This document shows positions 1,475 through 61,077 of a stretch of 64,000 nt of DNA, one piece after another (the first letter of the stretch is position 1; each line of letters starts with the position of its first letter). The notes under the pieces are model-generated. The model was not told where the DNA came from. It made no database searches and saw only the letters and a program-made list of their open reading frames with translations. Origin of the DNA: a virus. Made by a program: the position numbers and the translations under genes. The stretch lies in IMG/VR virus record IMGVR_UViG_3300044612_001981, positions 1-64,000 of that record; one strand, 5' to 3'.

Positions 1475-1663
1475 CTATTTAGGATTATCTGTCTTATAAA
1501 ATCCATTACCTTTAAATTGTATACCAAATGGTGTAAAATGTCTTATCATTTCAGAATCACATTCAACACATGTGTAACCTGGATCTGCATCCATGATTGA
1601 TCTATTAACAGAGAGTATTGCATGTGCATCGTCTTCTGAGCATTTATATTCGTATATAGGCAT
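1475..1663 (-). CDS. FmdB-family zinc ribbon protein
   Basis: This 62-residue protein begins MPIYEYKC, the signature start of the FmdB regulatory zinc ribbon family. A CxE...C pair near residues 8-10 and a CVEC at about 32-35 could bind one zinc. A GTG upstream in frame would add five residues. I chose the ATG because its TAATG overlaps the stop of the DUF2061-like gene and GGGGAAG lies just upstream. Family members occur widely in bacteria and phages, and their biochemical role is poorly known. The second cysteine cluster is complete, but the first shows only one clear Cys, so metal binding may be partial. Confidence 0.8.
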   Translation of the reverse strand: MPIYEYKCSEDDAHAILSVNRSIMDADPGYTCVECDSEMIRHFTPFGIQFKGNGFYKTDNPK

Positions 1664-1866
1664 TATTTTCTTCCCCACTTAACTTTATTCCACCCACGCT
1701 CATGGAAGTAATAAAGTATTGTTTTTGTAACTACCTCGAAGCTTGCGATTGCACCTGCCGTAACTGGTTCTTTGGTTATAAGCCAAGCAATAACAAATGT
1801 ATCTGCTGTTCCAATTATACGCCATGTAATAGCCTTTAATGCTGATCTTTGTTTTGATACATTCAT
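1663..1866 (-). CDS. small DUF2061-like membrane protein
   Basis: A 67-residue protein with two hydrophobic segments (about residues 12-29 and 35-52), a basic N-terminus and a C-terminal YFHERGWNKVKWG. That end is characteristic of the DUF2061 family of small predicted inner-membrane proteins. The ATG at 1866 is chosen over a GTG nine bases upstream because GGAG lies eight bases before it. It is coupled by a TAATG overlap to the FmdB gene. In bacteria DUF2061 proteins often neighbour sulfate-assimilation genes. Here the next gene upstream has an APS-kinase-like domain, a suggestive link I cannot test. Function unknown. Confidence 0.75.
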   Translation of the reverse strand: MNVSKQRSALKAITWRIIGTADTFVIAWLITKEPVTAGAIASFEVVTKTILYYFHERGWNKVKWGRK

Positions 1867-1914
1867 GCTGGCCACTCCATATTGTTAGGCCCTTTACTAA
1901 TTGCACTCCAAATT

Positions 1915-3665: not shown

Positions 3666-3738
3666 TGCCCCTGGAAGGAATCGAACCTCCGACACGCAGG
3701 GTAGAAACCTGCTGCTCTATCCCCTGAGCTACAGGGGC
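3666..3738 (-). tRNA. tRNA-Arg (anticodon TCT)
   Basis: A complete 73-base cloverleaf on the minus strand: 7-bp acceptor stem (GCCCCTG/CAGGGGC), D arm with GCTC/GAGC, anticodon stem GCAGG/CCTGC around the loop TTTCTAC, and T arm with the TTCGATT loop. The anticodon TCT reads AGA. No CCA is encoded. Its first ten bases overlap the last codons and the stop of the upstream oxygenase gene. Supplying an AGA-reading tRNA is plausible for an AT-rich phage in a host that uses AGA less. Confidence 0.95.
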
Positions 3739-4337
3739 ATATTTAGTGGTACCTTCATGTCTACTCCCAAGAAATTTGAATACGAATACCTATATCCCTT
3801 GGTAACTTCTTTTACTCCATGCCTGCATATTTCTTCTGCACTATGCACAACTAAGTCTCCTGGCTTGGGAGAATAAGTTATATTTTGATTTGTATAGAAT
3901 AGCTCCCCTCCAGACTCTACTTCATTAAAATACACAACCAATCCGTATCTTGAGTCCTCTATAACTTCATAAGGGTCTCCATCTTTTAGCAACTTAGACA
4001 TTTCTCTTTTTTCAAGAAAGTCATGTGCATCTATGTGCTCTCCCCAAGAATGTCCCTCAGACAAAACATTTACAGTTAAACCATTTTTAGTTTTATATTC
4101 TTTTGAAAACATATCCCTAATTCTATTGACTAATAGACTAAGATCTTCTATCTCCTCAGTAATTCTATTTTCAAAGTGTGTGCCATCGAATATCTTATGA
4201 TACTTTTTATTTTCCCTGAAAACATCGAATATGCCTACCATCTTTGAAACCTCTTCATCAGATAGAAAATTTTTATACACATAAATGTCTTCGCCTAGCT
4301 TAGTAAATCCTTTTTCTATAAAATATAGATCATTCAT
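3729..4337 (-). CDS. 2OG-Fe(II) oxygenase, prolyl-4-hydroxylase-like (divergent)
   Basis: A 202-residue double-stranded beta-helix dioxygenase. The Fe(II) triad is visible as HID (His101, Asp103) and the distal His173 in CRHGVKEV. Arg183 in KGYRYS should bind the 2-oxoglutarate carboxylate. It lacks the NDDYEGG strand shared by the six other oxygenases in the window and has FNEVESGGELFY instead, so it is a more distant relative. The start follows AGGGGG by about six bases. Its stop codon lies inside the tRNA-Arg gene. It sits between two tRNA genes and was probably co-transcribed with them from the promoter at 4436-4463. Substrate unknown. Confidence 0.85.
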   Translation of the reverse strand: MNDLYFIEKGFTKLGEDIYVYKNFLSDEEVSKMVGIFDVFRENKKYHKIFDGTHFENRITEEIEDLSLLVNRIRDMFSKEYKTKNGLTVNVLSEGHSWGEHIDAHDFLEKREMSKLLKDGDPYEVIEDSRYGLVVYFNEVESGGELFYTNQNITYSPKPGDLVVHSAEEICRHGVKEVTKGYRYSYSNFLGVDMKVPLNMPL

Positions 4338-4520: not shown

Positions 4521-5372
4521 TTAGCTTTTTTTATTATGCATTTGATCATAGAATTCCTCCGCCCAATAGTTATGCCAAGCCTTGCCTCTATGTCCGTCTG
4601 TTTTATGCAACTGAGACCCTAGATCTTCTTTTGGGTTTATGTATTTATCCAAATACTTTGCAGTTGAATAGTCATTGGCTCTCATATTTAATGTAAAAAA
4701 ATTTTTAAATGGTAATTTGACAAAAATATCTTCATCTTGATTACTCCATGTAGACCACACAATTTTAATTTTTAGAAGATCACAAATTTTTTCAAACATA
4801 TTCATATGTATAACGTTAGAGCTAAATGAATTAACTAACCTCTCATGATTTTCTTCTCCATGCAAAAAAAATGATTTATGCTCTATGGTTTTATTATCAG
4901 CTGAATATAATAAATTCCTATCTGATCCAGGCGCCAAAAAATATATCTCGTCTGGGATGCCAAATAAATCTATGTAATTTAAAAATATTGAAATCTGTAA
5001 ATATATACTAGAGCCACATTTAGCTATGTTAAAGTATCCACTTGTCTTTTCAGATAAAGATATCTTCTTGTATAGAATATATGCCCAAGTATCTTCAAGC
5101 CCATCGTTGCATCCTTGTGTTTCAGAACAACCCATAAAAAGTATATGCTTACCATTATGATTTTTTGTAAATTCATCGGATCTAAATAAATGACTATTAA
5201 ATTCATATTGATATTTTTTTATATAGGCATTCCTGTCGTCCCAAATATCCCAGTGGTAATTTAATGGATTAAAAATAAGATTGTCTACTGCTAAAAAATT
5301 TTTTTCTATTATCTTATTTCTTTCATCGATGTATTGCGCTTCTTGCTTATCAGACCAAAATTTTTGAACCAT
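4521..5372 (-). CDS. SGNH/GDSL hydrolase-like protein, paralogue 1
   Basis: A 283-residue protein. FMGCSETQG near residues 79-87 resembles the block I nucleophile-serine motif of SGNH hydrolases, and DGHRGKAWHNYW near the C-terminus could supply the catalytic Asp/His. It is clearly a paralogue of the protein at 6844-7794: both share an FNSH/FNAH-x-FRS segment, the GCS-x-T-x-G motif, a following I-x-x-YI-x-x-FG-x-P stretch and a VWSTW near the middle. SGNH enzymes remove or transfer acyl groups on glycans and lipids. Together with the adjoining carbamoyltransferase (23-base overlap) this suggests modification of a sugar or nucleotide, but the substrate is not visible. No signal peptide. Confidence 0.65.
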   Translation of the reverse strand: MVQKFWSDKQEAQYIDERNKIIEKNFLAVDNLIFNPLNYHWDIWDDRNAYIKKYQYEFNSHLFRSDEFTKNHNGKHILFMGCSETQGCNDGLEDTWAYILYKKISLSEKTSGYFNIAKCGSSIYLQISIFLNYIDLFGIPDEIYFLAPGSDRNLLYSADNKTIEHKSFFLHGEENHERLVNSFSSNVIHMNMFEKICDLLKIKIVWSTWSNQDEDIFVKLPFKNFFTLNMRANDYSTAKYLDKYINPKEDLGSQLHKTDGHRGKAWHNYWAEEFYDQMHNKKS

Positions 5373-6774
5373 ATTGTAATTCCCACCCCTCTATATCCAT
5401 TATATCATTTAGCAATGGCTGCCCTTTTATATTTAAGCTGGTATTAAGCAAAACTGGGCATCCTGTTTCCGAATACCATTTTTTTAATGTCATATGAAGT
5501 CCTGGATGCTGATCCCTACCAACTGTTTGAACTCTTGATGTGCCATCTTTATGTACTACAGATGGTATCTTGTCTGGCTGTATGCACTTTACAGTGTATT
5601 GCATATATGGAGACTTAAAGTCCATATCAAACCATTCAGATGCGAATTCTTCTAAAACTATGGGAGCAAACGGTCTAAATTGCTCTCTTTGCTTTATCAA
5701 ATTAACCTTGTCTTTAATATCTGGATCTCTTGGATCCGCCAAAATACTTCTATTGCCCAGCGCTCTTGGCCCATACTCGGCACGTCCAGATGCAACTGCA
5801 ACTATTTTATCTTTCTTTAATCCATCTATAATTTTATCAATTGGATATTCGTTGCCTAAATTATGCCCCAAGTAAGGTGATTCCCAATTTAAATGCTTTC
5901 CATACATTGCTGCAGCTGCACCTAATGAAGATCCTGCATCACCTGGATTTGGCATTATCCAAATATCTTTAAAAATTTTCCATAGTAATGTGTTGGCAGA
6001 TGAGTTAAGGGCGCATCCACCCATAAAAACAAGATTATTCTTGCCAGTTATTTGCTTTGCCATACTCATAAACTCAATCAATCTTTGCTCGTATACAACT
6101 TGAACTGCTGCTGCTATATCAAACTTATCTTGATCATTGATTACAGGACCCCAGTCTGTTATACCTTGGTGAAAATTATATGACTGTTCGTAATACTTTG
6201 GGAAATATGAATCTATCTCCTTGTAGTATTTTTTCCAGTCACCATAAGCTGCCATACCCATCATAATATACTCTTCTTGATTTGGCATAAGACCTATCAA
6301 TTTAGTAAATGCAGAGTAAAAAAGCCCAAAGCTCACTGGATAGTTTTGCTTAAACTTTAATTTAATTTTTTCGCCTTCTCCAACCCATATCGTGGAAGTG
6401 TTATATTCTCCTATAGCGTCTAGAACAACTATTGCGGCTTCTGTAAATTTGCTGGTATAGTAACCAGCGCAAGCGTGTGAGTAGTGATGCTTAAATAATT
6501 TTCTAGGAACACCATCTAAATTAAACCTTGGCTTCCAGTCTCCAGAACCACCTCTTAAAAATATTCTAGAGGCCTTTAGAAGCGGTTTTTCATAGTAGGC
6601 TATTGCATCAGGCAACCCATACGATAAAGCGTCTTCAATAAGCCCATCGTTTATATACCAATCATTTTTTTTCTTACTGTATCTTTCTGAATGCCCAGCA
6701 AACAATATCTCTCCGTTTTTAATTAAAGAAACTGAGGCATCATGAGATGTTTCATTTACTCCCAATATAATCAT
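5350..6774 (-). CDS. NodU/CmcH/TobZ-family O-carbamoyltransferase
   Basis: A 474-residue carbamoyltransferase. The N-terminal Kae1-like domain begins GVNETSHDAS (residues 5-14). The metal-binding HHYSHA lies near residues 96-101, and GGCALNSSAN near 255. The YrdC-like C-terminal part has EYGPRALGNRS, FRPFAP and LNTSLNIKGQP. Family members use carbamoyl phosphate and ATP to form a carbamoyl-adenylate and carbamoylate hydroxyls on antibiotics, Nod factors or sugars. At 474 residues it is shorter than the usual 550-600 and stops soon after the last conserved block, so a small C-terminal trim is likely. It is flanked on both sides by paralogous SGNH-like genes. Phage homologues exist, but their substrates are generally unknown. 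Confidence 0.9.
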   Translation of the reverse strand: MIILGVNETSHDASVSLIKNGEILFAGHSERYSKKKNDWYINDGLIEDALSYGLPDAIAYYEKPLLKASRIFLRGGSGDWKPRFNLDGVPRKLFKHHYSHACAGYYTSKFTEAAIVVLDAIGEYNTSTIWVGEGEKIKLKFKQNYPVSFGLFYSAFTKLIGLMPNQEEYIMMGMAAYGDWKKYYKEIDSYFPKYYEQSYNFHQGITDWGPVINDQDKFDIAAAVQVVYEQRLIEFMSMAKQITGKNNLVFMGGCALNSSANTLLWKIFKDIWIMPNPGDAGSSLGAAAAMYGKHLNWESPYLGHNLGNEYPIDKIIDGLKKDKIVAVASGRAEYGPRALGNRSILADPRDPDIKDKVNLIKQREQFRPFAPIVLEEFASEWFDMDFKSPYMQYTVKCIQPDKIPSVVHKDGTSRVQTVGRDQHPGLHMTLKKWYSETGCPVLLNTSLNIKGQPLLNDIMDIEGWELQYGSKILV

Positions 6775-6843
6775 TAATATATAAACCTATTCCCCTTTTT
6801 TTTCTTAAATTTATTTAACAATCTATGTATGTGATACATTATC

Positions 6844-7794
6844 TTAATTTTCATTTTTGCTCCATGACTTAATTTGATTAAGAAATTTATCTGCATAGTG
6901 CATGTGTCTATGGCTACCAAAATGTGCATGCTCTATGCCATGCTCTAAATCAGAAGCATTATGAAAAAATAAATCGTCTTCATGCTCTGTGTGACAGATT
7001 TCAGAATATTCATCTTTCATTAACTCTAAATTATAATTCCATTTATCAGTTTCCATAGATATAAAATCTGGGTACGGATTCAATATTGTATTTATTAGGT
7101 TTTCCGTACTTACATCCCATGTGCTCCATACAAAATTAATTCCATTAGACTTACAGTACTGCGATAAAATATGTATGCTGTTAGAAGAATACATACTTGA
7201 TATCTCTGATGTGATTATTTGCTCTAAATTTAATGGTCTTTTAAGATAGCGATTTCTATCCTGATATTCTTCTGGAGATATACTTTCTATATATAAAACG
7301 TGTGGTGGAGTAATTTCTGGGTTCTTTACCTTAAAAGCTTTTGAAGACATAAGGCTTTTATTATTAAAAGCCAAAAAACGATTAAAGTCTGGAAATAAAG
7401 CAATAATGTTTTTTGGATTTCCAAACTCATTTATATACTTAAATATTTTATTGACTTGACCAGTAATTGAATCCCCGCTGGCAGATATGTTGACGTATGA
7501 GGCCTTTAATTCTTTAATAATTAGCTCTGGCCATATTTTTTCTAATGGCAACCCAATGCCAAAAGTAATGGAGCATCCAGAAAAAATATAATCTGGATTG
7601 CTAATAAAGTCTGGCGACCTAAAGCTATGAGCATTAAATGAATGCACATTACCATGTATTATCTGGTCGTGTTTTTCATGTCTTATTGGCAATATGCTTG
7701 AATACAAATCTTCAAGCACAAATTTTTTAAAGCGTTGATCTGCTAATTCCGATGAAATTATTTTAATTATTGGGTAGTGATCATGTATTTTCAA
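6844..7794 (-). CDS. SGNH/GDSL hydrolase-like protein, paralogue 2
   Basis: A 316-residue paralogue of the protein at 4521-5372. FSGCSITFG (about residues 71-79) is the likely nucleophile block, and HFGSHRHMHYADKF near the C-terminus the likely acid/His block. Shared features with paralogue 1 include FNAH-x-FRSPDF, YINEFGNPKNI and FVWSTWD. The start is a TTG three bases after the stop of the upstream small gene, with GGAA about 11 bases before it. The frame has no nearby in-frame ATG. A probable enzyme of acyl or ester chemistry working with the carbamoyltransferase. The 69-base gap downstream holds only an AT-rich stretch. Confidence 0.62.
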   Translation of the reverse strand: MKIHDHYPIIKIISSELADQRFKKFVLEDLYSSILPIRHEKHDQIIHGNVHSFNAHSFRSPDFISNPDYIFSGCSITFGIGLPLEKIWPELIIKELKASYVNISASGDSITGQVNKIFKYINEFGNPKNIIALFPDFNRFLAFNNKSLMSSKAFKVKNPEITPPHVLYIESISPEEYQDRNRYLKRPLNLEQIITSEISSMYSSNSIHILSQYCKSNGINFVWSTWDVSTENLINTILNPYPDFISMETDKWNYNLELMKDEYSEICHTEHEDDLFFHNASDLEHGIEHAHFGSHRHMHYADKFLNQIKSWSKNEN

Positions 7795-7797
7795 TTG

Positions 7798-8028
7798 TTA
7801 TTCAGTTCCTAAGCTAAAAACAATCTCCTGAACATACTCTGAAAAATGCTTTCTAACACTTCCTGGTGGCCTTCCGCCATAATTATTCCAGATCCTCTTA
7901 TATTCAATTACATTGTAGTATGTAGTTGGGCAAAGTGTGAGTCCGTTATAAGACTTAAGGGTTGTTGGCAATGGCACATGCTTGGTGCAGCACTTGCATT
8001 GTTTTGCTCTTTCTTGATATTCGCTCAT
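7798..8028 (-). CDS. small Cys-rich protein next to terminase
   Basis: A 76-residue basic protein with a CKCC cluster (residues 11-14) and another Cys near residue 33, consistent with a small zinc-binding fold, and an SVRKHF segment. The start ATG overlaps the terminase stop (ATGA). Phages often place an HNH endonuclease beside the terminase, but no HNH histidines are visible here. I do not recognise a family. Confidence 0.6.
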   Translation of the reverse strand: MSEYQERAKQCKCCTKHVPLPTTLKSYNGLTLCPTTYYNVIEYKRIWNNYGGRPPGSVRKHFSEYVQEIVFSLGTE

Positions 8029-9830
8029 ATTATCTCCATGCTTTCTATAGATCTAGCTAAATTTTCTGGCATTCTTGGTGCACGAATCATATTTTGAACA
8101 TATTCGACTTCGCCATCATTACCATTTGCAAAGTCATTGTCATAGCTCATTGACTCATAATCATGAATTTTTATTTCTTCATCTCTTTTTATTCTACTTC
8201 TGCTTATAGAATTATAAACGGCTCCACATACAGCATCAGCTAAATCTTTAGAGCCTTTTCTTGGGTGATCAACCTTATCTCTCATAATTCTAAGCTGAAG
8301 CAATTCATCAATTAATAACGGTATGTGTGGCCCAGATAATCTTTCTTCTAGGACAACCATAGCCATGTCGTCATAATGTTTTTTTGCAACTGAAAGTATC
8401 TCTGTATTAATTCCGTATGTTTTGAGCTGCTGCATCATATCGTGAGAGTTCCATCTATCGAATGTACACACCCTTATGTTAAACCCTCTAGTTTTTAAAG
8501 AAAGAATATAGTCCTTTACCTCTGTAAAGTCTACAGATTTATCTGGGGTAGGAGTCCAAAATCTAACGGCATCTATTTCTACAATAGGTGCTGGCTGATT
8601 ATATGTGTCTGTTACCTTTATGTCTACCCATTTACTTACATGTCCCATCGCTACTGCACAATGGTCATGCTTCTGAGCTAAGTCTACATGAATAAAGTAA
8701 TCTTTGCCTTCTTCTGGCTTAAACCATTCCTCAAGCCTTCCAAAATTATCTACTGCTAGGTTAGCTTTATTAAATGCCTTTTCAATTTTTTCTCTAGATT
8801 TAAAAAATGCATCTACAGCATCCGAAGGCATACATGCAAATCTTCCGAGTGCGTCCTGCGGATTTTTGTGAAATGCAACTGTAAAATCTGTTATTTTTTT
8901 TGTAGGATTAACTTCCCATGTTGGTCTTTTAAGTGCAAATACTCTTGGGTATACATAGGAAACTATATGGTCCTCTTCCCATGCGACCTCAAACTCATTT
9001 CCAGGAGTTCCATCTGGAAGATCTTTGTCTAACTTTAATAGCTCTGTTCTCATAACAGTTTCTTTTTCGGCTATAACCGATTCATAAAATTTTTGGATTG
9101 GATCATTTTTAAATCGGGGAAAAGATAGCAAAATTACCTTACCTACATCTGGGAAACGTGAATCAACAGATGCTCTATACATATCGTATATAGCATCTGC
9201 AGTCTTTGCTTGATCATGTCCGCTGGTATTTTCTGTTGCAAAACCAGAAATTTCATCTAAGATAACAACCAGTACGTTATAACCTTCCCAAGCCTCTCTT
9301 TCTGAGTGGCCAGAATGAACTGTAATTGATTTATCAAACTTAATTTCTGATGCTTTATCAGTATATTTACCAGCAAACCACGGAGAAACTTCAATTCTCA
9401 TTTTAAAACCTTTAAAAAAAACATTGTTGGCCTGCTGAGAGTTGATAGCAATATTTAAAATATCTATCGCATCTCTTGGCGGTTTACCATAGTATGCTGC
9501 TGGATCTTTTAAGCATAACAAAAGATAAACTATATATGCAACTGCAATTGTTGAAGAGTAATCTTTACCAGATCCTTTCCCTAACTGTGCAATAACTTCA
9601 ACACAGGTTTGTTTAAATAGTTTTTTGCCCAGCTCTTCGCCATAAAGTTTTATTAATGTAGACTCTTTATATATCTGAGAACTTCTTTCTATAAGAGTGT
9701 ACTGGTTTTCAGATAGTGGAGGCAAGCCAAGATAGTCTGGGCTTGTTACAAAAGTTTGAAGGTCTACTGGACGCTCTTCAAACTCTTCCCCGTCTAGTAT
9801 CTCTATTAGGTCTGAAAAATCAAACGACAT
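8025..9830 (-). CDS. terL: terminase large subunit (TerL)
   Basis: A 601-residue packaging motor. The N-terminal ATPase has a Walker A QLGKGSGKD (residues 82-90) and a Walker B VVILDE with the catalytic Glu at 193. The C-terminal RNase H-like nuclease shows HVDLAQ (Asp383), FDRW (Asp458) and KDLADA (Asp529/532). TerL translocates DNA into the prohead and cuts the concatemer. I chose the ATG at 9830, which overlaps the small terminase by 11 bases. A TTG four codons upstream is possible. Unlike in most siphoviruses, the portal gene is more than 40 kb away in this window. Confidence 0.95.
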   Translation of the reverse strand: MSFDFSDLIEILDGEEFEERPVDLQTFVTSPDYLGLPPLSENQYTLIERSSQIYKESTLIKLYGEELGKKLFKQTCVEVIAQLGKGSGKDYSSTIAVAYIVYLLLCLKDPAAYYGKPPRDAIDILNIAINSQQANNVFFKGFKMRIEVSPWFAGKYTDKASEIKFDKSITVHSGHSEREAWEGYNVLVVILDEISGFATENTSGHDQAKTADAIYDMYRASVDSRFPDVGKVILLSFPRFKNDPIQKFYESVIAEKETVMRTELLKLDKDLPDGTPGNEFEVAWEEDHIVSYVYPRVFALKRPTWEVNPTKKITDFTVAFHKNPQDALGRFACMPSDAVDAFFKSREKIEKAFNKANLAVDNFGRLEEWFKPEEGKDYFIHVDLAQKHDHCAVAMGHVSKWVDIKVTDTYNQPAPIVEIDAVRFWTPTPDKSVDFTEVKDYILSLKTRGFNIRVCTFDRWNSHDMMQQLKTYGINTEILSVAKKHYDDMAMVVLEERLSGPHIPLLIDELLQLRIMRDKVDHPRKGSKDLADAVCGAVYNSISRSRIKRDEEIKIHDYESMSYDNDFANGNDGEVEYVQNMIRAPRMPENLARSIESMEII

Positions 9831-10359
9831 CTGACTCTTCAATTATATTAATAGACTGGACAATACCAGTTATTTGAGATAATCTTTTTGCTACCTCTAT
9901 CTTGCAGTGGTTGCATCCAGAAGTTACCTCTTTTAGTATACCAACAAGCATCTCTTGTTTTCTTTCTGTCTCAAGTATCTGAGAAGCTATCTCGCTATTT
10001 TCTAAAACCCCGATAGACTGAAGCATGGCAATTCTTTTTGTCTCTATGTCTGCTATAAGCTTTAGTGTTCCAGACTTAACATTAAGCTGACCTTGTGTGT
10101 CAGCATCTTCTACTGTTTTCCATGCTTCTTTAATTAGCATATCGTAATGTTGATCTGCCCCAAGCAACGCCTCTTTGGCTCTATCTCTAATATTTGTATC
10201 ATTATGTACAATAGACTTCCACTCATCTACATACTCAAGGACTTCTTTTCTTGTGAACCCAGTTATGGTGGCTATTTGTGTAGCAGAATTTCCCTTTAGT
10301 AGTTCAGAAACTACCCTATTCATCTTGTCAAAGTGGACTGCTGGCTCTATTTCGCTCAT
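9820..10359 (-). CDS. terS: terminase small subunit-like protein
   Basis: A 179-residue helical protein directly before TerL. A helix-turn-helix (SATQIATITGFTRKEVLEYV, about residues 25-44) is followed by a long amphipathic helical region. Its position and architecture match small terminases, which bind the packaging site and assemble into a ring. A CxxC lies near residues 148-151. The -10 TATAAT is exactly six bases from the ATG and there is no Shine-Dalgarno sequence, so this mRNA is probably leaderless. Assignment rests on position and HTH rather than recognised homology. Confidence 0.75.
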   Translation of the reverse strand: MSEIEPAVHFDKMNRVVSELLKGNSATQIATITGFTRKEVLEYVDEWKSIVHNDTNIRDRAKEALLGADQHYDMLIKEAWKTVEDADTQGQLNVKSGTLKLIADIETKRIAMLQSIGVLENSEIASQILETERKQEMLVGILKEVTSGCNHCKIEVAKRLSQITGIVQSINIIEESDVV

Positions 10360-54663: not shown

Positions 54664-55776
54664 TTAATTCTCTTCTAAGGCTTTAACTCTCGCTGTAAGC
54701 TCTTGAACTGCTTTTATTAAGGGTGAAATAAATTGATCGTATCTTAATCCCTGCATTGAGTCTTCTTGAGACATGTCTATTTTTACCCATCCCGCAAAGT
54801 CTTCTACTCCAGACTGATCTAAAACCTCTTTAACTTCTTGTGCTATTAATCCGTAATGAGTTCTTGTTCCAGGAACTGAAACTATGTCTCCGTCAACTAC
54901 TTCTTTACTGCCTTCAATAAACTTATAGCTTACTGGACGTAAAGAATTAACAAAATCTAAACCAAGAAGTGAGTCGGCAACTCCTGTTTTTAATCTTTCA
55001 TCAGAAGTATTTATTGTTCCAGTGTTAGAGTATATAGTTTTCCAAAATCTATTTGATGCTACACCAGCACCCGCATCTATTGGCTGTCCTATTGAGTACA
55101 AGTTATTTGCAAGTGGGTACCAGTTTGAGTTTACTCCATATCCAGACGTTGTTGGAATATTTAATGAAATAGTTGTAGGTACTGGATCAATAGTTGCACT
55201 AGATCCAGGGATTCCTTGTGGGCCTTGTGCTCCAGTTAATCCAGTTGCGCCTCTAGGTATTGTAAAAGCAAATACAGCATTCGTAGCGGTTCCAGTATTT
55301 GTGACAGAAGCATTTGTTCCAGCTGCACCAGTTGTTGTTGTTCCAATTGCTAGTGTAGTTGGCCCTGGTATTCCTTGTGGTCCTGCTGGGCCAACAGGCC
55401 CTTGTGGTAAAACAAGATTTAAAGTTTGTGAGGGACTTGTGCCAGATATAGTTGCAGCTGCATTTACACCAGACTCAACAGTTCCTATTGAAAGAACATT
55501 AGATGGTCCTGGGCCTCCAATTATTCCATCCACACCTCTAGGTAATGTTAAATTTAATATTGCTGCTTCTGGTGTTCCTACATTTACTACTGACGCTGGA
55601 GTTGATGCGCTAACAGTTGTTACAGAGCCTATCGTTAAAGTACCTGAAGGCCCTTGTGGGCCAGGATGGTCGTCAAGATAGGCATCTACGTCGGCAGCAA
55701 GGTAACCAAGGTCTCTAGGGACGTCTGGCGTGTCTGTATACTGCGGGTATCTAAACCCTTTTCCTGTTGTGCTCAT
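54664..55776 (-). CDS. collagen-like tail fibre with S74 chaperone domain
   Basis: A 370-residue fibre. Three or four short Gly-x-Pro-rich collagen-like blocks (about residues 38-45, 80-93, 124-140 and 174-193) alternate with beta modules of about 47 residues ending LPRG or IPRG. The C-terminus is a peptidase S74 intramolecular chaperone: TSDERLK (Ser258, Asp259) then RYDQFISPLIKAVQEL. The pattern implies a trimeric fibre that cleaves itself. Downstream of the oxygenase block; its proline-containing GPQG/GIPG triplets are candidate hydroxylation sites. TATAAT is six bases before the ATG (leaderless). Confidence 0.88.
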   Translation of the reverse strand: MSTTGKGFRYPQYTDTPDVPRDLGYLAADVDAYLDDHPGPQGPSGTLTIGSVTTVSASTPASVVNVGTPEAAILNLTLPRGVDGIIGGPGPSNVLSIGTVESGVNAAATISGTSPSQTLNLVLPQGPVGPAGPQGIPGPTTLAIGTTTTGAAGTNASVTNTGTATNAVFAFTIPRGATGLTGAQGPQGIPGSSATIDPVPTTISLNIPTTSGYGVNSNWYPLANNLYSIGQPIDAGAGVASNRFWKTIYSNTGTINTSDERLKTGVADSLLGLDFVNSLRPVSYKFIEGSKEVVDGDIVSVPGTRTHYGLIAQEVKEVLDQSGVEDFAGWVKIDMSQEDSMQGLRYDQFISPLIKAVQELTARVKALEEN

Positions 55777-55796: not shown

Positions 55797-56447
55797 TTAC
55801 TTAATATATACATGTGAAGGACTCATGTATCTTGTGCCAGAAATAATTGGCTTTACCTCATGGAGATATGGAAGTTGTGAAGGAAACATTATTAGGCTTC
55901 CAGATTTTGGCTTTATTGTAATATTTTGATTAGGAAAATGTATTTCTCCGCCTTCATAATCATCGTTTATATAGGCAACAAGAGAGAATGCAAGCGAGGA
56001 GTCACCATCTTGACCATCAAAATGTGGTCCCATAGATTGTCCTTGGTTCCATTTTTTAATTGGCACACGACTTAACTCTAAATTATATTTGTCTTTGTCT
56101 AATCCATGTCCAGATAAATATTTATCTGTACACATTTCAAAGGCCATTAAAAAGCTATTAGCAATATAAAGAGTTTTTTTATCTGTTGAGTCTGAACCAG
56201 TAGCTTCTTTTAATTTATTTGGGAATATGTTTTTTGTAGCCCCGTAAATCAATGACTCATCATTACTGGCATTCCAATTTTCCCACTTAGAAATCCTATT
56301 GTATGAAAGAGGGTCTGAGTCTATCTCTTCAATAAATTCCTTTAGGTGCTCTGGAAAGCTAAGAGCATTTTCCCAGTACCATATTTGAGGATCTAATACC
56401 TTCAGATCAAACATTATAAACTGCTTAAAGATTGGCTCTGATTGCAT
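55797..56447 (-). CDS. 2OG-Fe(II) oxygenase, prolyl-4-hydroxylase-like (1 of 5)
   Basis: A 216-residue dioxygenase with HFD (His142, Asp144), NDDYEGGEIHF (161-171), YLHEVKP (His196) and GTRY (Arg206), a complete iron and 2-oxoglutarate site. GAGGGA precedes the ATG. Directly before the collagen-like fibre promoter. Closest catalytic-core relatives in the window are the neighbouring oxygenases, so the group probably arose by duplication. Confidence 0.9.
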   Translation of the reverse strand: MQSEPIFKQFIMFDLKVLDPQIWYWENALSFPEHLKEFIEEIDSDPLSYNRISKWENWNASNDESLIYGATKNIFPNKLKEATGSDSTDKKTLYIANSFLMAFEMCTDKYLSGHGLDKDKYNLELSRVPIKKWNQGQSMGPHFDGQDGDSSLAFSLVAYINDDYEGGEIHFPNQNITIKPKSGSLIMFPSQLPYLHEVKPIISGTRYMSPSHVYIK

Positions 56448-56448
56448 T

Positions 56449-57201
56449 TTATCCCTCTACTTCTGATGCTGGATACACTTCTCCACGTGGAGTTATTCTT
56501 AATCCCTTATTTCGATAATCTTCCCACTCAATAGCTTCATCTGCTTGTATGGCTCTAACCTGCCTAAGCTCTTCAGCCCATGCATCTCTTACTTCTTGTG
56601 GGTAATCTTCTTCTTCTCTATCATCCCAAAATGATCCAAGAGTGTAGCGTATTGATTTTTTAACTGTGGTGACTTCGTGCATATTATGGAAGCCTCCAGC
56701 AAATGTAACAAGTGTGCCAGTTTTGGGAACAATAGTTAATCCATGCTTGAAGTTTAACACTCCATCTTCAAAGTCATCATTCAGATAAAGAAATGTTGCG
56801 TATCTACTTCTGGTAAATGCACCAGCTACACCATCATTTGAAGTGTTATCTGAGTGCATATTGGCAAAAGCTCCTGGGGCCCATCTTTGTGAATGCCAGC
56901 TTATTTGAGACATTTGTTCTGGGTTTTTACCAGCCATATCTGCTGTTGCATCAATAACTCTTTGTCTTAATACTTGAAAAAAATCTCCTGGAAGTCCACA
57001 ATCAATTGTGTCTGGATCATTTACTTCTGGCATTCCAGACGAATATGATTCATAGAAAGAAATAGGCATCCACTTTAATTGCTCTTTTTCCATTTTAATA
57101 GCAAGCACTTTAATTACTGATTGACATTCTTCTGGTGTCAAAAAGTTTTCATAAGTTACAATATCTGGCTGGTGCTTAGTTATAATCATGCTTCTTTCCA
57201 T
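56449..57201 (-). CDS. 2OG-Fe(II) oxygenase, prolyl-4-hydroxylase-like (2 of 5)
   Basis: A 250-residue dioxygenase with HSD (His116, Asp118), a variant NDDFEDG strand (141-147), NMHEVTT (His175) and SIRYT (Arg185). A charged, helical 50-residue C-terminal extension rich in Glu/Arg follows the core. One base separates its stop from the next gene. A second start, four codons in, is possible. Confidence 0.88.
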   Translation of the reverse strand: MERSMIITKHQPDIVTYENFLTPEECQSVIKVLAIKMEKEQLKWMPISFYESYSSGMPEVNDPDTIDCGLPGDFFQVLRQRVIDATADMAGKNPEQMSQISWHSQRWAPGAFANMHSDNTSNDGVAGAFTRSRYATFLYLNDDFEDGVLNFKHGLTIVPKTGTLVTFAGGFHNMHEVTTVKKSIRYTLGSFWDDREEEDYPQEVRDAWAEELRQVRAIQADEAIEWEDYRNKGLRITPRGEVYPASEVEG

Positions 57202-57204
57202 GTT

Positions 57205-58020
57205 TTATTTTACTCCTGTGTCTTCTGGGGCGTACTCTTCATATGGAACTATTAATCCATCTTTAAAGTAGATCATGTTTCTCTTATCTTCATAATCTAT
57301 TCTTTCTGATTCCATTTTAGCCCATCGATATGCTCCAAATTTTCTTTGATTTGCAAGCCACTCTTCTGTGCCATTATGTGGTGTCATTATAAAGTTTCTA
57401 ACAAAAAACTTTTCGTTAGTATTAATTGTTTTTACACCATGAAAATAAGGCTCTGTTGATGGGAAAACTAGAATGTCTCCAGCTTTTGGCTTATGATTAA
57501 TAAGATCACCATTAATATAAAATTCAATATCGCCGCCATCATAGTCATCATTAATATACATTGTACATGTAAGGAAAAATTTATCTCCAGGCATATCTCT
57601 TTGTGAGGTTATATGGTCTGTATGATATTGCATTGTCATGTTATTTTGCAATGAATCTATCTTTGCGTTGTATTTAGAATAGGAACATCCGCTAAATCTC
57701 CAGCCTTCTGGAAGCACTATTCCGTGTCTTTCAACATAATCTAATAAAACCTTATTATATGCCTCTTCAACTTCTTCTACAAATTTTTTTTCTTTCAAAA
57801 ACATTTCTTCCTTTTGAATATCTAAAGAAACTTGGCTCATATCCTTTTTTTGTGAATAAGTTCCAAAATGAGCCCAAGGGTCCCAATTAGTTAAAAAATA
57901 TTTGCCCTCTGAAGTTTTTTCTGATTCATTCATTATTGAATACATCTCAGATGGATTTTTTAAAACATTTCTATATACATCAACTTTTGGGTAAAGCTCT
58001 ACATACTCTAAGTTATTCAT
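57205..58020 (-). CDS. 2OG-Fe(II) oxygenase, prolyl-4-hydroxylase-like (3 of 5)
   Basis: A 271-residue dioxygenase with HTD (His133, Asp135), INDDYDGGDIEF (156-167), FHGVKT (His194) and FFVRNF (Arg208). I chose the ATG at 58020, which overlaps the upstream stop as ATGA and follows AGGAGAG, not the longer frame that starts 12 codons earlier. The C-terminal extension is charged. Most like the 12160-13146 protein in having a long helical N-terminal part. Confidence 0.88.
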   Translation of the reverse strand: MNNLEYVELYPKVDVYRNVLKNPSEMYSIMNESEKTSEGKYFLTNWDPWAHFGTYSQKKDMSQVSLDIQKEEMFLKEKKFVEEVEEAYNKVLLDYVERHGIVLPEGWRFSGCSYSKYNAKIDSLQNNMTMQYHTDHITSQRDMPGDKFFLTCTMYINDDYDGGDIEFYINGDLINHKPKAGDILVFPSTEPYFHGVKTINTNEKFFVRNFIMTPHNGTEEWLANQRKFGAYRWAKMESERIDYEDKRNMIYFKDGLIVPYEEYAPEDTGVK

Positions 58021-58691
58021 GGCTGTCTCTCTCCTGTGTGTTTGTTTATTGTCCAAAAAAATGGTGAAGTAAATCTATTGCCAGATTTAACTGGTCTAAC
58101 TCCATGCGTATAGTTCATGTCGCCTGGGAAAAAATATGCTGCTCCAGCAACTGGCTGGAATTCAATTCCATGTTGTGGGAAGTATAACTCGCCGCCTTCA
58201 TAGTCGTCGTTAAAATAAAAAAGACCAGCTAGATCATACCAAGGAAAGTCATTTGGCCTTCCTTTTTCTGGTCCAGAATGAAATTCTTTATCGGCATGAG
58301 GCTCTTGTCTTGCTCCTACTGGCCACCTAACAATTGCTGGTCCTGTTTCTTTTGCATCTACCTCAAAAAATTTATCTACTTCTATTTTTAATCTAGCTAT
58401 CATGCTATAAATTAACTCAAGTATCGAAGGGTCTGATGCCATTAAAGAATTATATGTGCAAACTCTGTCTTCCCAGACTTTGTGGTCATACAAAACTAGC
58501 CCATCTTCATCTACATGAGTTTCTGTTATGTCCCAAATTTTATTATTTAATGCAAAGTCCATAAGCCTAGTACGTTCTTCTATAGATAAAAAGTCTTTAA
58601 TTTCTACAATATTGCTTGATGAGTTACCAAAAAATCCAGATGGTGTTATGGACTTAGGTGCATTTCCGTTCCAGCTATTTGCCATTTTCAT
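58017..58691 (-). CDS. 2OG-Fe(II) oxygenase, prolyl-4-hydroxylase-like (4 of 5)
   Basis: A 224-residue dioxygenase with PHAD (His132, Asp134), FNDDYEGGELYFP (160-172), YTHGVRP (His196) and GNRFTSP (Arg206). GGAG lies six bases before the chosen ATG; an earlier ATG four codons upstream is inside the ribosome site. Complete catalytic set. Confidence 0.88.
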   Translation of the reverse strand: MKMANSWNGNAPKSITPSGFFGNSSSNIVEIKDFLSIEERTRLMDFALNNKIWDITETHVDEDGLVLYDHKVWEDRVCTYNSLMASDPSILELIYSMIARLKIEVDKFFEVDAKETGPAIVRWPVGARQEPHADKEFHSGPEKGRPNDFPWYDLAGLFYFNDDYEGGELYFPQHGIEFQPVAGAAYFFPGDMNYTHGVRPVKSGNRFTSPFFWTINKHTGERQP

Positions 58692-59409
58692 TTTTATCTC
58701 CATGATTCATTATATCATTATTTACCTTAAGCCTTATTGCTTTTACTTGATGAGAGCCAATTTTTCTCTTTAAATGATCTACGGCGTCCCTATAAAAATT
58801 AGACCATATCGCTTGTCTATTTAATTCGTATATTACATTAGAATACTCGTTTGGGTCAAATGATGGACTTTGCAAAGAGCCTACCGACTCAAAGTTTATT
58901 TCAGAGTTTTGTAAGTCTTCTAGGTTAATTGGTAATATTGCAATTACTGGTGTTCCTGCTTTTATTGTTATTACTTCATTTGGTTTAGTTACCATCCATG
59001 CACATGGTAATTCTCCTCTAAAAAAAGATGTACTAATTAAAGTTGTAAATGGAACAGCACCATCAATAAATAAATTAGGAACTGGCATGGACAATAAGCT
59101 AGAGTTTTTTTCTGTAGAAAACATTAGTCCTGTATTAAAACTAACAGTACCATTGGCTCTTCCAGAATATGCGTACTTTTCACCAGATAATATTTTTACG
59201 TGATCTGGTGAGCTATCTGATACTCCATCCCATATAAAAGAAATGTCTTCTGGAAAAGATATACCCCAGCCCATTTGGTTTGTTAGACCAACTGGGAAAC
59301 ACTTATATGCATGAGCTTCCCAAGTATTGTCCATCCAATCTCTTTTAATCGAAAGTGGATTAACTTCACCAAAACCCTCTCTTATAACATAAGCCTTAAT
59401 TTTATGCAT
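58675..59409 (-). CDS. unknown protein inside the oxygenase cluster
   Basis: A 244-residue protein with a beta-rich N-terminal half (GWGISFPEDISFIWDG, about residues 47-62) and a helical, basic C-terminus. It lacks the HxD...H iron triad, so it is not another oxygenase. I have a weak impression of a cupin-like barrel or a DUF6065-type protein, unverified. Its tight overlaps with both oxygenase neighbours (29 and 8 bases) suggest a shared function, possibly substrate binding or delivery. Confidence 0.6.
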   Translation of the reverse strand: MHKIKAYVIREGFGEVNPLSIKRDWMDNTWEAHAYKCFPVGLTNQMGWGISFPEDISFIWDGVSDSSPDHVKILSGEKYAYSGRANGTVSFNTGLMFSTEKNSSLLSMPVPNLFIDGAVPFTTLISTSFFRGELPCAWMVTKPNEVITIKAGTPVIAILPINLEDLQNSEINFESVGSLQSPSFDPNEYSNVIYELNRQAIWSNFYRDAVDHLKRKIGSHQVKAIRLKVNNDIMNHGDKNENGK

Positions 59410-60115
59410 TTTGATTTTTACCAGTTTTGGCGTCTTCTTCTACCCATTTGGCTCTCATTTGCATAAACTCTTGTCTATGAGCATGATCATTGTAGTCTAA
59501 CATTGTTACTATAGAAAATTTCATTCCAGATTCAACTGGCATTGCTCTATGTGAAAATAAATATGTAGATGGGAATATATATAGGTCACCAGCTTTTGGC
59601 TTAATATCTAGGTTTAACTTAGGAAAATAAAGATTTCCACCTTCATAGTCATCATTGACATATGCTACAAGAGATACAGTAGCACTATAAGAAAATCCAT
59701 GGTCAGCATGCTCTTGAAAATGTTGTCCCTTACCGTATCTAATGCAATTCATAACTTCCCAGTAATTCATTTTTACATTATACATTCCGCAATAATCATC
59801 TACAGCTGGAGACTGATATTGCTTTAAGTCTGACCATAATTCTGAAACAAGCTTCTCTGTATTGGAATGAGGGTAAAGAATTTCACCTACCTTAATATCT
59901 TCACAATCTCTATAGGAGGGCCTTTTTTCACTATACCCTACAAATCCAAAAGTCCAAGCATATCTTGAATCTCCATCATTAACTGCAGACTGACCAATTG
60001 CATCTAAACGGTTAATAACGTCAATTTCTTTTTTAATTACATCTCTATAAACCCAGACTCCTGGTGCAAGCTGCTCTTTTGAAGAAAAAGAATAATTGTT
60101 GTTTAAATTTGTCAT
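59402..60115 (-). CDS. 2OG-Fe(II) oxygenase, prolyl-4-hydroxylase-like (5 of 5)
   Basis: A 237-residue dioxygenase with HAD (His136, Asp138), VNDDYEGGNLYFP (153-165) and FSHRAMP (His189). The residue that should contact 2-oxoglutarate is Lys199 (GMKFS) rather than Arg. Human collagen prolyl 4-hydroxylases also use Lys there, so activity is expected. TACAAT lies six bases before the ATG and there is no Shine-Dalgarno sequence, so this first gene of the oxygenase block is probably leaderless. Confidence 0.88.
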   Translation of the reverse strand: MTNLNNNYSFSSKEQLAPGVWVYRDVIKKEIDVINRLDAIGQSAVNDGDSRYAWTFGFVGYSEKRPSYRDCEDIKVGEILYPHSNTEKLVSELWSDLKQYQSPAVDDYCGMYNVKMNYWEVMNCIRYGKGQHFQEHADHGFSYSATVSLVAYVNDDYEGGNLYFPKLNLDIKPKAGDLYIFPSTYLFSHRAMPVESGMKFSIVTMLDYNDHAHRQEFMQMRAKWVEEDAKTGKNQNA

Positions 60116-60186: not shown

Positions 60187-61077
60187 TTAGTAGAACCTGA
60201 GTCCGAAAGCGCCACCAAATGCTGGTGGGGAAAAGAACCCTGGTGGGGCAAAGAATCCTGGTGGTGAGAAGAATCCTGGTGGTGCGAAGAATCCTGGTGG
60301 TGAGAAGAATCCTGGTGGGAAAAACGGCGGTGCGAAGAAGCTTGGTGGGAAGAACGGTGGGAAGAACGGTGGTGCGAAGAACACTGGTGGGAAGAACGGT
60401 GGGAAAAACGGTGGTGCGAAGAAGCTTGGTGGGAAGAACGGTGGGAAGAACGGTGGCGAAAAGAAGCTTGGTGCAAGAGTAGTAACTGTGTTAGAGTTAC
60501 TAGATGCAACTGATCTTCCATTAGCATTATCTGCATATACGTTGTAATACTGAGATGTTCCAGCAGTATCTGCAATTGATACAGATAGTCCAGTTGAATT
60601 TCCAGTTGTTCCGTCATTACCAGCAATATAATAGTTGGTAATTGCAGTTCCACCATTTGATGGAGCTGCCCAGCTTACTGTGTTAGCATTTACTCCAGCT
60701 GTTGCAGAAACGCTTGTTGGAGCGGCTGGAACAGTTGTTGCAGTTGCTGAGGCTGAGTTTGAATCTGCAGAAGTATTAAAAGAGTCTACTGCTTTTACGG
60801 TATATGAATAAGATGTTCCACCAGCTAATCCAGTATCAGAATATGTAACAGTTGGAGCATTTACTGTTGCTATCTCTGTTCCATTTCTGAATACCTTATA
60901 CTGAGTTGGAGTGTTACCTGCAGCGGGAGCTGTCCATGCAAGGTTAATCATACCATTGTTAAATGGTCTTTGATTATTAACACCATTTAAATGATTTGTT
61001 GCTGTAAGGCCTGTTGGTGCATTTGGGCCAATGAAGTTGTCTTGAGCTGATGCTCTTCTACCTATATTTTTTGACAT
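60187..61077 (-). CDS. fibronectin-type protein with FFxPP repeat tail
   Basis: A 296-residue protein. Two fibronectin type III-like domains (about residues 19-115 and 117-202) end in a C-terminal tail (205-290) built almost wholly from Phe-Phe-Ser/Ala/Pro-Pro-Pro and Gly-Phe-Phe-Ser/Ala-Pro-Pro units, then AFGGAFGLRFY. This composition is unusual. GGAG occurs before the ATG. It could attach to other tail proteins through its FN3 part and use the Phe/Pro tail for membrane or surface contact. The prolines are candidate hydroxylation sites for the adjoining oxygenases. Confidence 0.85.
   Translation of the reverse strand: MSKNIGRRASAQDNFIGPNAPTGLTATNHLNGVNNQRPFNNGMINLAWTAPAAGNTPTQYKVFRNGTEIATVNAPTVTYSDTGLAGGTSYSYTVKAVDSFNTSADSNSASATATTVPAAPTSVSATAGVNANTVSWAAPSNGGTAITNYYIAGNDGTTGNSTGLSVSIADTAGTSQYYNVYADNANGRSVASSNSNTVTTLAPSFFSPPFFPPFFPPSFFAPPFFPPFFPPVFFAPPFFPPFFPPSFFAPPFFPPGFFSPPGFFAPPGFFSPPGFFAPPGFFSPPAFGGAFGLRFY
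60226..60480 (-). repeat. short DNA repeats coding FFxPP
   Basis: A roughly 250-base stretch of near-identical units, 12 to 24 bases long, around GGTGGTGCGAAGAA and GGTGGGAAGAACGG (plus strand). They encode the Phe/Pro tail, and the low divergence suggests recent expansion. Confidence 0.9.

What the first reader, a model, noticed from the sequence alone, without database searches (positions are those of the whole stretch)
4521..7794. SGNH-carbamoyltransferase-SGNH cassette with paralogous flanks
Two SGNH-like proteins that share several segments (FNSH/FNAH-x-FRS, GCS-x-T-x-G, VWSTW) flank a NodU/TobZ-type carbamoyltransferase. This looks like a modification pathway for a sugar, lipid or modified nucleotide. 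Possible targets are host capsule or O-antigen, phage virion glycans, or phage DNA bases.
Basis: partly seen in the sequence, partly recalled or inferred. Interest (0 to 1): 0.75.

Follow-up and report, generated by a model that had tools for sequence, protein, structure and literature searches.

The report
Phage carbamoyltransferase with obligate variable partners
A family of freshwater phages carries a very conserved carbamoyl-attaching enzyme that is inherited only together with fast-changing serine-enzyme partners, which points to a shared chemical decoration pathway that is probably not aimed at phage DNA and whose target is still unknown.

Summary
On the minus strand, SG2 (6844-7794), a NodU/TobZ-type O-carbamoyltransferase CT (5350-6774) and SG1 (4521-5372) form one block. 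SG1 and SG2 are true but ancient paralogues (25% identity). No Pfam, PHROG or NCBIfam model names them; AlphaFold2/Foldseek gives an SGNH/TesA-like fold with an invariant Ser-Asp-His. The canonical block-III Asn is missing.

New result: across 23 related phage records, SG genes are the only gene family perfectly tied to CT (13/13 CT+ versus 0/10 CT-, p=9e-7). Anchoring on the terminase gives the same picture (12/13 versus 0/19). CT is under strong purifying selection (78-88% identity at saturated synonymous sites, even where TerL is 55-57% identical). SGs are hypervariable, 1-5 per genome, often translationally coupled to CT. The unit is a gain/loss cassette behind terminase.

A protective cytosine modification is disfavoured. 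Thymidylate-synthase homologues are absent, and CCGG is absent from CT+ (0/652 expected) and CT- (0/353) phages alike. Best reading: a two-enzyme tailoring module that carbamoylates and (de)acylates one non-DNA hydroxyl acceptor, most likely a glycan. The substrate is inferred, not shown.

Side finds: complete CCGG avoidance; tandem 2OG-Fe(II) oxygenase arrays beside (FFPP)n-repeat proteins.

The parts
4521..5372 (-). SG1: SGNH-fold protein, 283 aa, partner downstream of CT; predicted Ser83 / Asp259 / His261
   Evidence: ORF; alignment A2 with G81, S83, G87, H261 invariant; AF2 pLDDT 87.8, Foldseek best PDB hit TesA E=1e-4, prob 1.0
5350..6774 (-). CT: NodU/TobZ-type O-carbamoyltransferase, 474 aa, Kae1-like N-terminal plus YrdC-like C-terminal domain
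   Evidence: PF02543 / PF16861 / phrog_1601; PDB sequence matches novobiocin carbamoyltransferase, GdmN, TobZ; H96, H97, H100, D279, E333, G335-R337, R342 invariant in 24 relatives
6844..7794 (-). SG2: SGNH-fold protein, 316 aa (TTG start), partner upstream of CT; predicted Ser75 / Asp282 / His291
   Evidence: ORF; S75, D282, H291 invariant in 52 relatives; AF2 pLDDT 89.9, Foldseek best hit TesA
5350..5372 (-). 23-nt overlap of CT end and SG1 start (ATG of SG1 inside CT), with GAGGGG upstream of the SG1 ATG: translational coupling
   Evidence: sequence; the same -20 to -23 overlap recurs in L003, L008, L009, L010
7798..8028 (-). HYP76: conserved 76-aa protein fixed behind TerL; border of the variable slot that holds the SG-CT cassette
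   Evidence: follows TerL with 4-nt overlap in all 32 terminase-anchored loci with at least 5 kb downstream, with or without the cassette
8025..9842 (-). Terminase large subunit (anchor gene; nearest named relatives are Streptomyces phages, about 64%)
   Evidence: phrog_2 and related; tblastn
3729..4337 (-). 2OG-Fe(II) oxygenase next to the cassette (between the two tRNA genes); possible but unproven accessory
   Evidence: PF13640 E=3e-7; this family is present in 13/13 CT+ and 7/10 CT- records, so not specifically linked

Best explanation
The block is a co-inherited tailoring module of a lineage of (probably actinobacterial, freshwater) tailed phages. CT activates carbamoyl phosphate with ATP and puts a carbamoyl group on a hydroxyl of an acceptor that is the same in all these phages. 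The SG proteins, intracellular serine enzymes of SGNH-like fold, act on the same product as O-acyl (de)esterases or acyl transferases, and they diversify quickly, so they carry the phage-specific part of the chemistry. The acceptor is most likely a sugar (host envelope glycan or a glycan on the virion) and not the phage DNA. Shown here: gene content, fold class, intact active-site residues, obligate co-inheritance, conserved CT versus variable SG. Inferred: the shared substrate, the direction of the SG reaction, the glycan nature of the acceptor and any benefit in adsorption or superinfection exclusion.
For: CT family and active-site residues. SG fold and invariant Ser/Asp/His. Genome-wide association: SG 13/13 CT+ versus 0/10 CT-, p=8.7e-7, next best family p=0.0016. 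Terminase-anchored sample: SG within 5 kb in 12 of 13 CT+ and 0 of 19 CT-, p=6e-8, hand-deduplicated 3e-6. Profile search of 12 records: SG only in the two CT+ ones. 19 of 30 SG genes lie within 3 kb of CT, 2.0 expected. SG directly upstream of CT in 27 and downstream in 15 of 54 distinct loci, 17 and 13 of them coupled. CT 78-88% identical at saturated fourfold sites while TerL falls to 55-57%. No PF00303 and no PF12851 above cut-off; CCGG avoidance the same with and without CT.
Against: No glycosyltransferase of family GT2 or PF11397 was found in the 80.9-kb record itself, so a glycan acceptor would have to be the host's or its genes lie on the missing part. PF11397 is not clearly linked to CT (5 of 15 CT+ records, 1 of 10 CT-). 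The canonical SGNH block-III Asn is missing, so catalysis by SG is not assured. No biochemical data; the substrate is guessed from exclusion and from NodU/TobZ chemistry.
Confidence: 0.42

Rival explanations
1. Virion-protein decoration: 2OG-Fe(II) oxygenases hydroxylate Pro/Lys of collagen-like or (FFPP)n tail proteins, GlcNAc transferases add sugar, CT carbamoylates and SG trims the result.
For: 8 PF13640 oxygenases in this record, five in tandem (with a DUF6065 gene between) next to a collagen-like tail fibre and an (FFPP)n protein; a 2OG gene is ATGA-coupled to CT in 4 distinct loci, PF11397 or Trp halogenase genes lie near CT in others; S-MS29 has CT next to 2OG genes and tail fibres.
Against: 2OG genes and CT assort independently: CT- record G016 has 14, CT+ record G020 has one; (FFPP)n proteins occur in CT- records; CT is far more constrained than a tail-protein acceptor would lead one to expect.
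Confidence: 0.22
2. Nucleic-acid modification: CT makes 5-carbamoyloxymethylcytosine or a similar base, and SG edits it.
For: A phage-type carbamoyltransferase was shown to act on 5hmC in DNA, RNA and nucleotides (PMC8670742); the cassette lies behind the terminase.
Against: The proven enzyme co-occurs with a thymidylate-synthase homologue, absent from G000-G007 including five records of 111-118 kb; no TET/JBP hit above cut-off; CCGG 0/652 expected in CT+ and 0/353 in CT-, so CT relieves no avoidance; the residue at the position that should match TobZ W408, one of that study's three discriminating positions, is an invariant Val here (correspondence by motif only).
Confidence: 0.1
3. Peptide or small-molecule tailoring of the crocagin type: 2OG oxygenase, SGNH-fold hydrolase and NodU-type carbamoyltransferase process one peptide or metabolite, with Trp halogenase and DUF6065 as variants.
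For: Foldseek lists CgnD (hydrolase of crocagin biosynthesis) for both SGs; the crocagin cluster also has a 2-oxoglutarate-dependent dioxygenase and carbamoyltransferase CgnI (PMC10070186); Trp halogenase and DUF6065 beside CT in L036 and L065.
Against: CgnD is only one of many SGNH-fold hits (rank 15-17, TM-score about 0.4); no precursor-peptide gene was identified; other SGNH esterases match as well.
Confidence: 0.1
4. Passenger genes: SG and CT are linked only because they sit in one mobile slot and travel together without a shared pathway.
For: The slot behind HYP76 is a gain/loss island with other variable genes; CT shows mosaicism (L036 versus L012).
Against: SG follows CT also when they are not adjacent (11 of 30 SG genes lie more than 3 kb away, none in CT- records), in loci with other gene orders and in two TerL lineages; a Pelagibacter phage with a divergent CT has an SG homologue two genes upstream.
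Confidence: 0.1

Closest known systems
NodU/TobZ/novobiocin-type O-carbamoyltransferases (PF02543+PF16861)
   Same: Both domains, metal-site histidines and aspartate, and the GPRALGxRSILADPR motif are present
   Different: 474 aa against 576-702 aa for the solved TobZ and GdmN chains, short variable C-terminus; phage-borne; obligate SG partners
Phage 'Nol-like' carbamoyltransferases of cyanophages and pelagiphages (phrog_1601)
   Same: Same family, 29-43% identity; often near 2OG-Fe(II) oxygenases, glycosyltransferases or tail fibres
   Different: Of five such neighbourhoods examined, only Pelagibacter phage Mosig has an SG-like gene; one cyanophage paper reads the enzyme as the first step of pyrimidine synthesis (PMC9146016), which does not fit a NodU-type enzyme
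5-hydroxymethylcytosine carbamoyltransferase (MetaGPA, eLife 2021, PMC8670742)
   Same: Phage-associated NodU/TobZ-type carbamoyltransferase
   Different: That enzyme is 63 kDa and linked to thymidylate synthase; here no thymidylate synthase homologue, and CCGG is still avoided
TesA / GDSL-SGNH esterases and carbohydrate esterases
   Same: Predicted fold; Ser in GxSxTxG after the first core strand and Asp-x(n)-His before the last helix
   Different: GCS in place of GDS; no conserved block-III Asn, instead near-invariant Pro and Arg; no Pfam or PHROG model matches SG1 or SG2
Crocagin biosynthesis (CgnC, CgnD, CgnI)
   Same: Enzyme kit of dioxygenase, hydrolase with a Ser-His-Asp triad and carbamoyltransferase
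   Different: Cellular peptide pathway; only fold-level resemblance of SG to CgnD

Membership tests
NodU/TobZ O-carbamoyltransferase | Carbam_trans_N and Carbam_trans_C domains in one chain | tested here: met
   PF02543 125.6 bits and PF16861 179.7 bits, both over the curated cut-off
NodU/TobZ O-carbamoyltransferase | Conserved metal-site His-x3-His and Asp of the Kae1-like domain and YrdC-like motif | tested here: met
   H96/H97, H100, D279 and GPRALGNRSILADPR invariant in 24 relatives; aligned with the same motifs of PDB 9s2t
NodU/TobZ O-carbamoyltransferase | ATP- and carbamoyl-phosphate-dependent O-carbamoylation | not testable with these tools
   needs purified enzyme
5hmC carbamoyltransferase (PMC8670742) | Co-occurrence with a thymidylate-synthase homologue making 5hmC | tested here: not met
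   PF00303 absent from 8 of 8 records
5hmC carbamoyltransferase (PMC8670742) | Modified cytosine in phage DNA | tested here: inconclusive
   Not measured; CCGG 0/652 expected in CT+ phages argues against protection
SGNH/GDSL hydrolase superfamily | SGNH fold | tested here: met
   AF2 pLDDT 88-90; Foldseek TesA E=1e-4, prob 1.0 for both
SGNH/GDSL hydrolase superfamily | Block I nucleophile Ser (GxSxTxG) and block V Asp...His | tested here: met
   Ser, Asp and His 52/52
SGNH/GDSL hydrolase superfamily | Block II Gly | tested here: met
   G107 in 45/52, small residue in the rest; the column was assigned from sequence position
SGNH/GDSL hydrolase superfamily | Block III Asn after the third core strand | tested here: not met
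   N138 in 4/52; the loop has near-invariant P135 and R139. Hence 'SGNH-like fold', strict membership not claimed
SGNH/GDSL hydrolase superfamily | Catalytic Ser-His distance in the model | not testable with these tools
Crocagin-type (CgnD) hydrolase | Leader-peptide cleavage next to a precursor peptide gene | not tested
   no systematic search for a precursor peptide gene

The most novel reading that the evidence does not exclude
A two-stage decoration system: the constant carbamoyltransferase loads a carbamoyl (or prepares an acceptor) on one fixed small molecule, and the hypervariable serine enzymes pass it on to, or trim it from, phage-specific targets, so that one core enzyme serves an evolving set of transferases that remodel the virion or host surface.
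Probability: 0.08. Interest if true: 0.8.

Novelty: new variant of a known kind. Interest (0 to 1): 0.52.

Why it matters
Carbamoyltransferases are common in aquatic phages and are usually filed as auxiliary metabolic genes, in one paper as pyrimidine synthesis. The perfect co-inheritance with an unnamed, fast-evolving serine-enzyme family gives a concrete partner and a testable pathway. The comparison of phages with and without the cassette in the same genomic slot is a natural experiment for finding the substrate.

Tried and rejected
Searches of SG1, SG2 and two distant SG members in 50,697 phage records gave nothing; Pfam, PHROG and NCBIfam models do not name SG1 or SG2. Considered and rejected: a recent tandem duplication of SG (distant clades); CT as a recently transferred gene (fourfold sites saturated); an obligate link of CT with the 2OG arrays; known routes to modified cytosine or thymine. 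The host was approached through PstS: best match 35% to an Actinomycetota MAG, suggestive only. Literature search for phage carbamoyltransferase plus SGNH gave one unrelated paper.

Full report
1. What is there. The window is bases 1-64000 of an 80,899-base virus record (G000, IMG/VR, a linear fragment). Terminase, portal, head protease, tail and replication genes mark it as a tailed phage. On the minus strand the order is TerS (putative), TerL, a 76-aa protein (HYP76), SG2, CT, SG1, tRNA-Met, a 2OG-Fe(II) oxygenase, tRNA-Arg, a nuclease, an HSP20-like and an NMN-adenylyltransferase-like gene (the last two names are my reading of the sequences). CT carries both carbamoyltransferase domains and keeps the motifs of the solved NodU/TobZ-type enzymes. 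SG1 and SG2 are paralogues with E=2e-17. No curated family names them.

2. Fold of the flanking proteins. With 45-52 relatives from other contigs as alignment, AlphaFold2 gave pLDDT 87.8 and 89.9. Foldseek against the PDB puts E. coli TesA first for both, followed by other SGNH esterases. Ser75, Asp282 and His291 of SG2 are identical in all 52 relatives; block-I Gly residues too. The Ser follows the first core strand and the His precedes the last helix, as in SGNH enzymes. The Asn that should follow the third core strand is not conserved; Pro135 and Arg139 are. I therefore speak of an SGNH-like fold and a probable Ser-Asp-His triad, not of strict SGNH membership. I saw no signal peptide at either N-terminus (reading of the sequence, not a prediction run), so the proteins probably act inside the cell.

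3. CT is a constant core. IMG/VR holds at least 562 relatives of CT; the best 80 are 77-85% identical, apart from one exact copy. Between six long records CT is 78-89% identical although fourfold-degenerate sites agree only 37-53%, that is, near saturation; TerL between the two groups of these records is only 55-58% identical. CT is thus more constrained than the terminase in this comparison. One CT (L036) is 97% identical to L012 over its middle and about 53-80% elsewhere, which suggests recombination or an assembly chimera.

4. SG is tied to CT. Around 54 distinct CT genes an SG lies immediately upstream in 27 and immediately downstream in 15, coupled (gap under 20 nt or overlap) in 17 and 13. 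This sample was picked by CT, so I also anchored on the terminase. Of 32 terminase loci with at least 5 kb behind TerL, 13 have CT and 12 of these have SG within 5 kb; of 19 without CT none has SG (Fisher p=6e-8, and 3e-6 after removing near-duplicates by eye). Searching 12 whole records of that set with profiles gave SG only in the two CT+ records. Clustering all ORFs of 23 records, SG is the only family with perfect association (13/13 versus 0/10, p=8.7e-7; next best 0.0016). Of 30 SG genes 19 lie within 3 kb of CT, 2.0 expected; the others lie elsewhere in CT+ records, which speaks against mere hitch-hiking. Loci found by SG queries all have CT beside them, but they are few and partly redundant. 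A Pelagibacter phage (Mosig) with a divergent CT has a weak SG match (E=9e-9) two genes upstream. Limits: records are fragments, the CT+ and CT- groups were chosen differently, and the tests do not correct for relatedness.

5. Position and variation. The cassette sits in a slot between HYP76 and the nuclease/HSP20 genes; in CT- relatives the slot is short or holds other genes. Other occupants next to CT in some phages are 2OG-Fe(II) oxygenases (ATGA-coupled in four loci), PF11397 GlcNAc transferases, tryptophan halogenase, DUF6065 and a zinc alcohol dehydrogenase. A tree places SG1 with SGs of other phages in the same coupled downstream position and SG2 with upstream ones.

6. What it acts on. 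The one characterised phage carbamoyltransferase of nucleic acids makes 5-carbamoyloxymethylcytosine and co-occurs with a thymidylate-synthase homologue (PMC8670742); that family is absent from eight records including five of 111-118 kb, and no TET/JBP match reaches the cut-off. CCGG is absent from all 23 records: 0 of 652 expected with CT and 0 of 353 without. A cytosine modification that protected the genome should have relaxed this. A modification of another kind, or of RNA, is not excluded. The 2OG oxygenases are not tied to CT (G016 without CT has 14, G020 with CT has one), so the protein-hydroxylation scenario is possible but not obligatory. The constancy of CT suggests a constant acceptor and the variability of SG a variable task; from NodU/TobZ chemistry a sugar hydroxyl is the natural guess. 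This step is inference.

7. Novelty. Both enzyme classes are known. The obligate pairing, and the SG family itself, were not found in the libraries and papers searched. I rate it a new variant of a known kind. The functional claim is moderate; the co-inheritance claim is strong for the records examined.

Noticed in passing
whole record G000; 22 further related records (L092-L122, L206-L262): The tetranucleotide CCGG is completely absent: 0 of 50 expected here and 0 of about 1005 expected over 23 related phage records; CGCG is 38 of 645. One record (G004) also lacks TCGA (0 of 78.5). This points to a strong, shared host restriction pressure (single CCGG in 1.07 Mb of CT loci).
   Followed up: partly
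window 55797-60115 (-), with 54664-55776 and 60187-61077: A tandem array of five 2OG-Fe(II) oxygenases with a DUF6065 gene, set between a collagen-like tail fibre and an fn3 protein ending in (FFPPFFPPSFFAPP)n. The same neighbourhood recurs in G001, G004, G014 and G016; (FFPP)n proteins occur in 5 of 8 records with five or more oxygenases and 1 of 15 others, p=0.009. Looks like prolyl-hydroxylase arrays next to their substrate.
   Followed up: partly
L089:4356-6827 (record 67355-69826): Second (FFxPP)n-repeat protein, 823 aa, with Cys-rich C-terminus.
   Followed up: no
L036 7317-8756 versus L012 8001-9446: CT genes that are 97% identical in the middle and 53-80% at both ends: intragenic recombination or assembly chimera.
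   Followed up: partly
L065:2281-3897 and L036: Tryptophan halogenase genes (PF04820) with DUF6065 genes next to SG and CT in phage contigs.
   Followed up: no
L052:8100-8558 and relatives: TipAS antibiotic-recognition domain protein directly behind CT in 10 of 54 distinct loci.
   Followed up: no
window 1663-1875; G001:25449-25679 and relatives: A short membrane protein family (DUF2061-like by eye) is found in 9 of 13 CT+ and 0 of 10 CT- records (p=0.0016, uncorrected).
   Followed up: no
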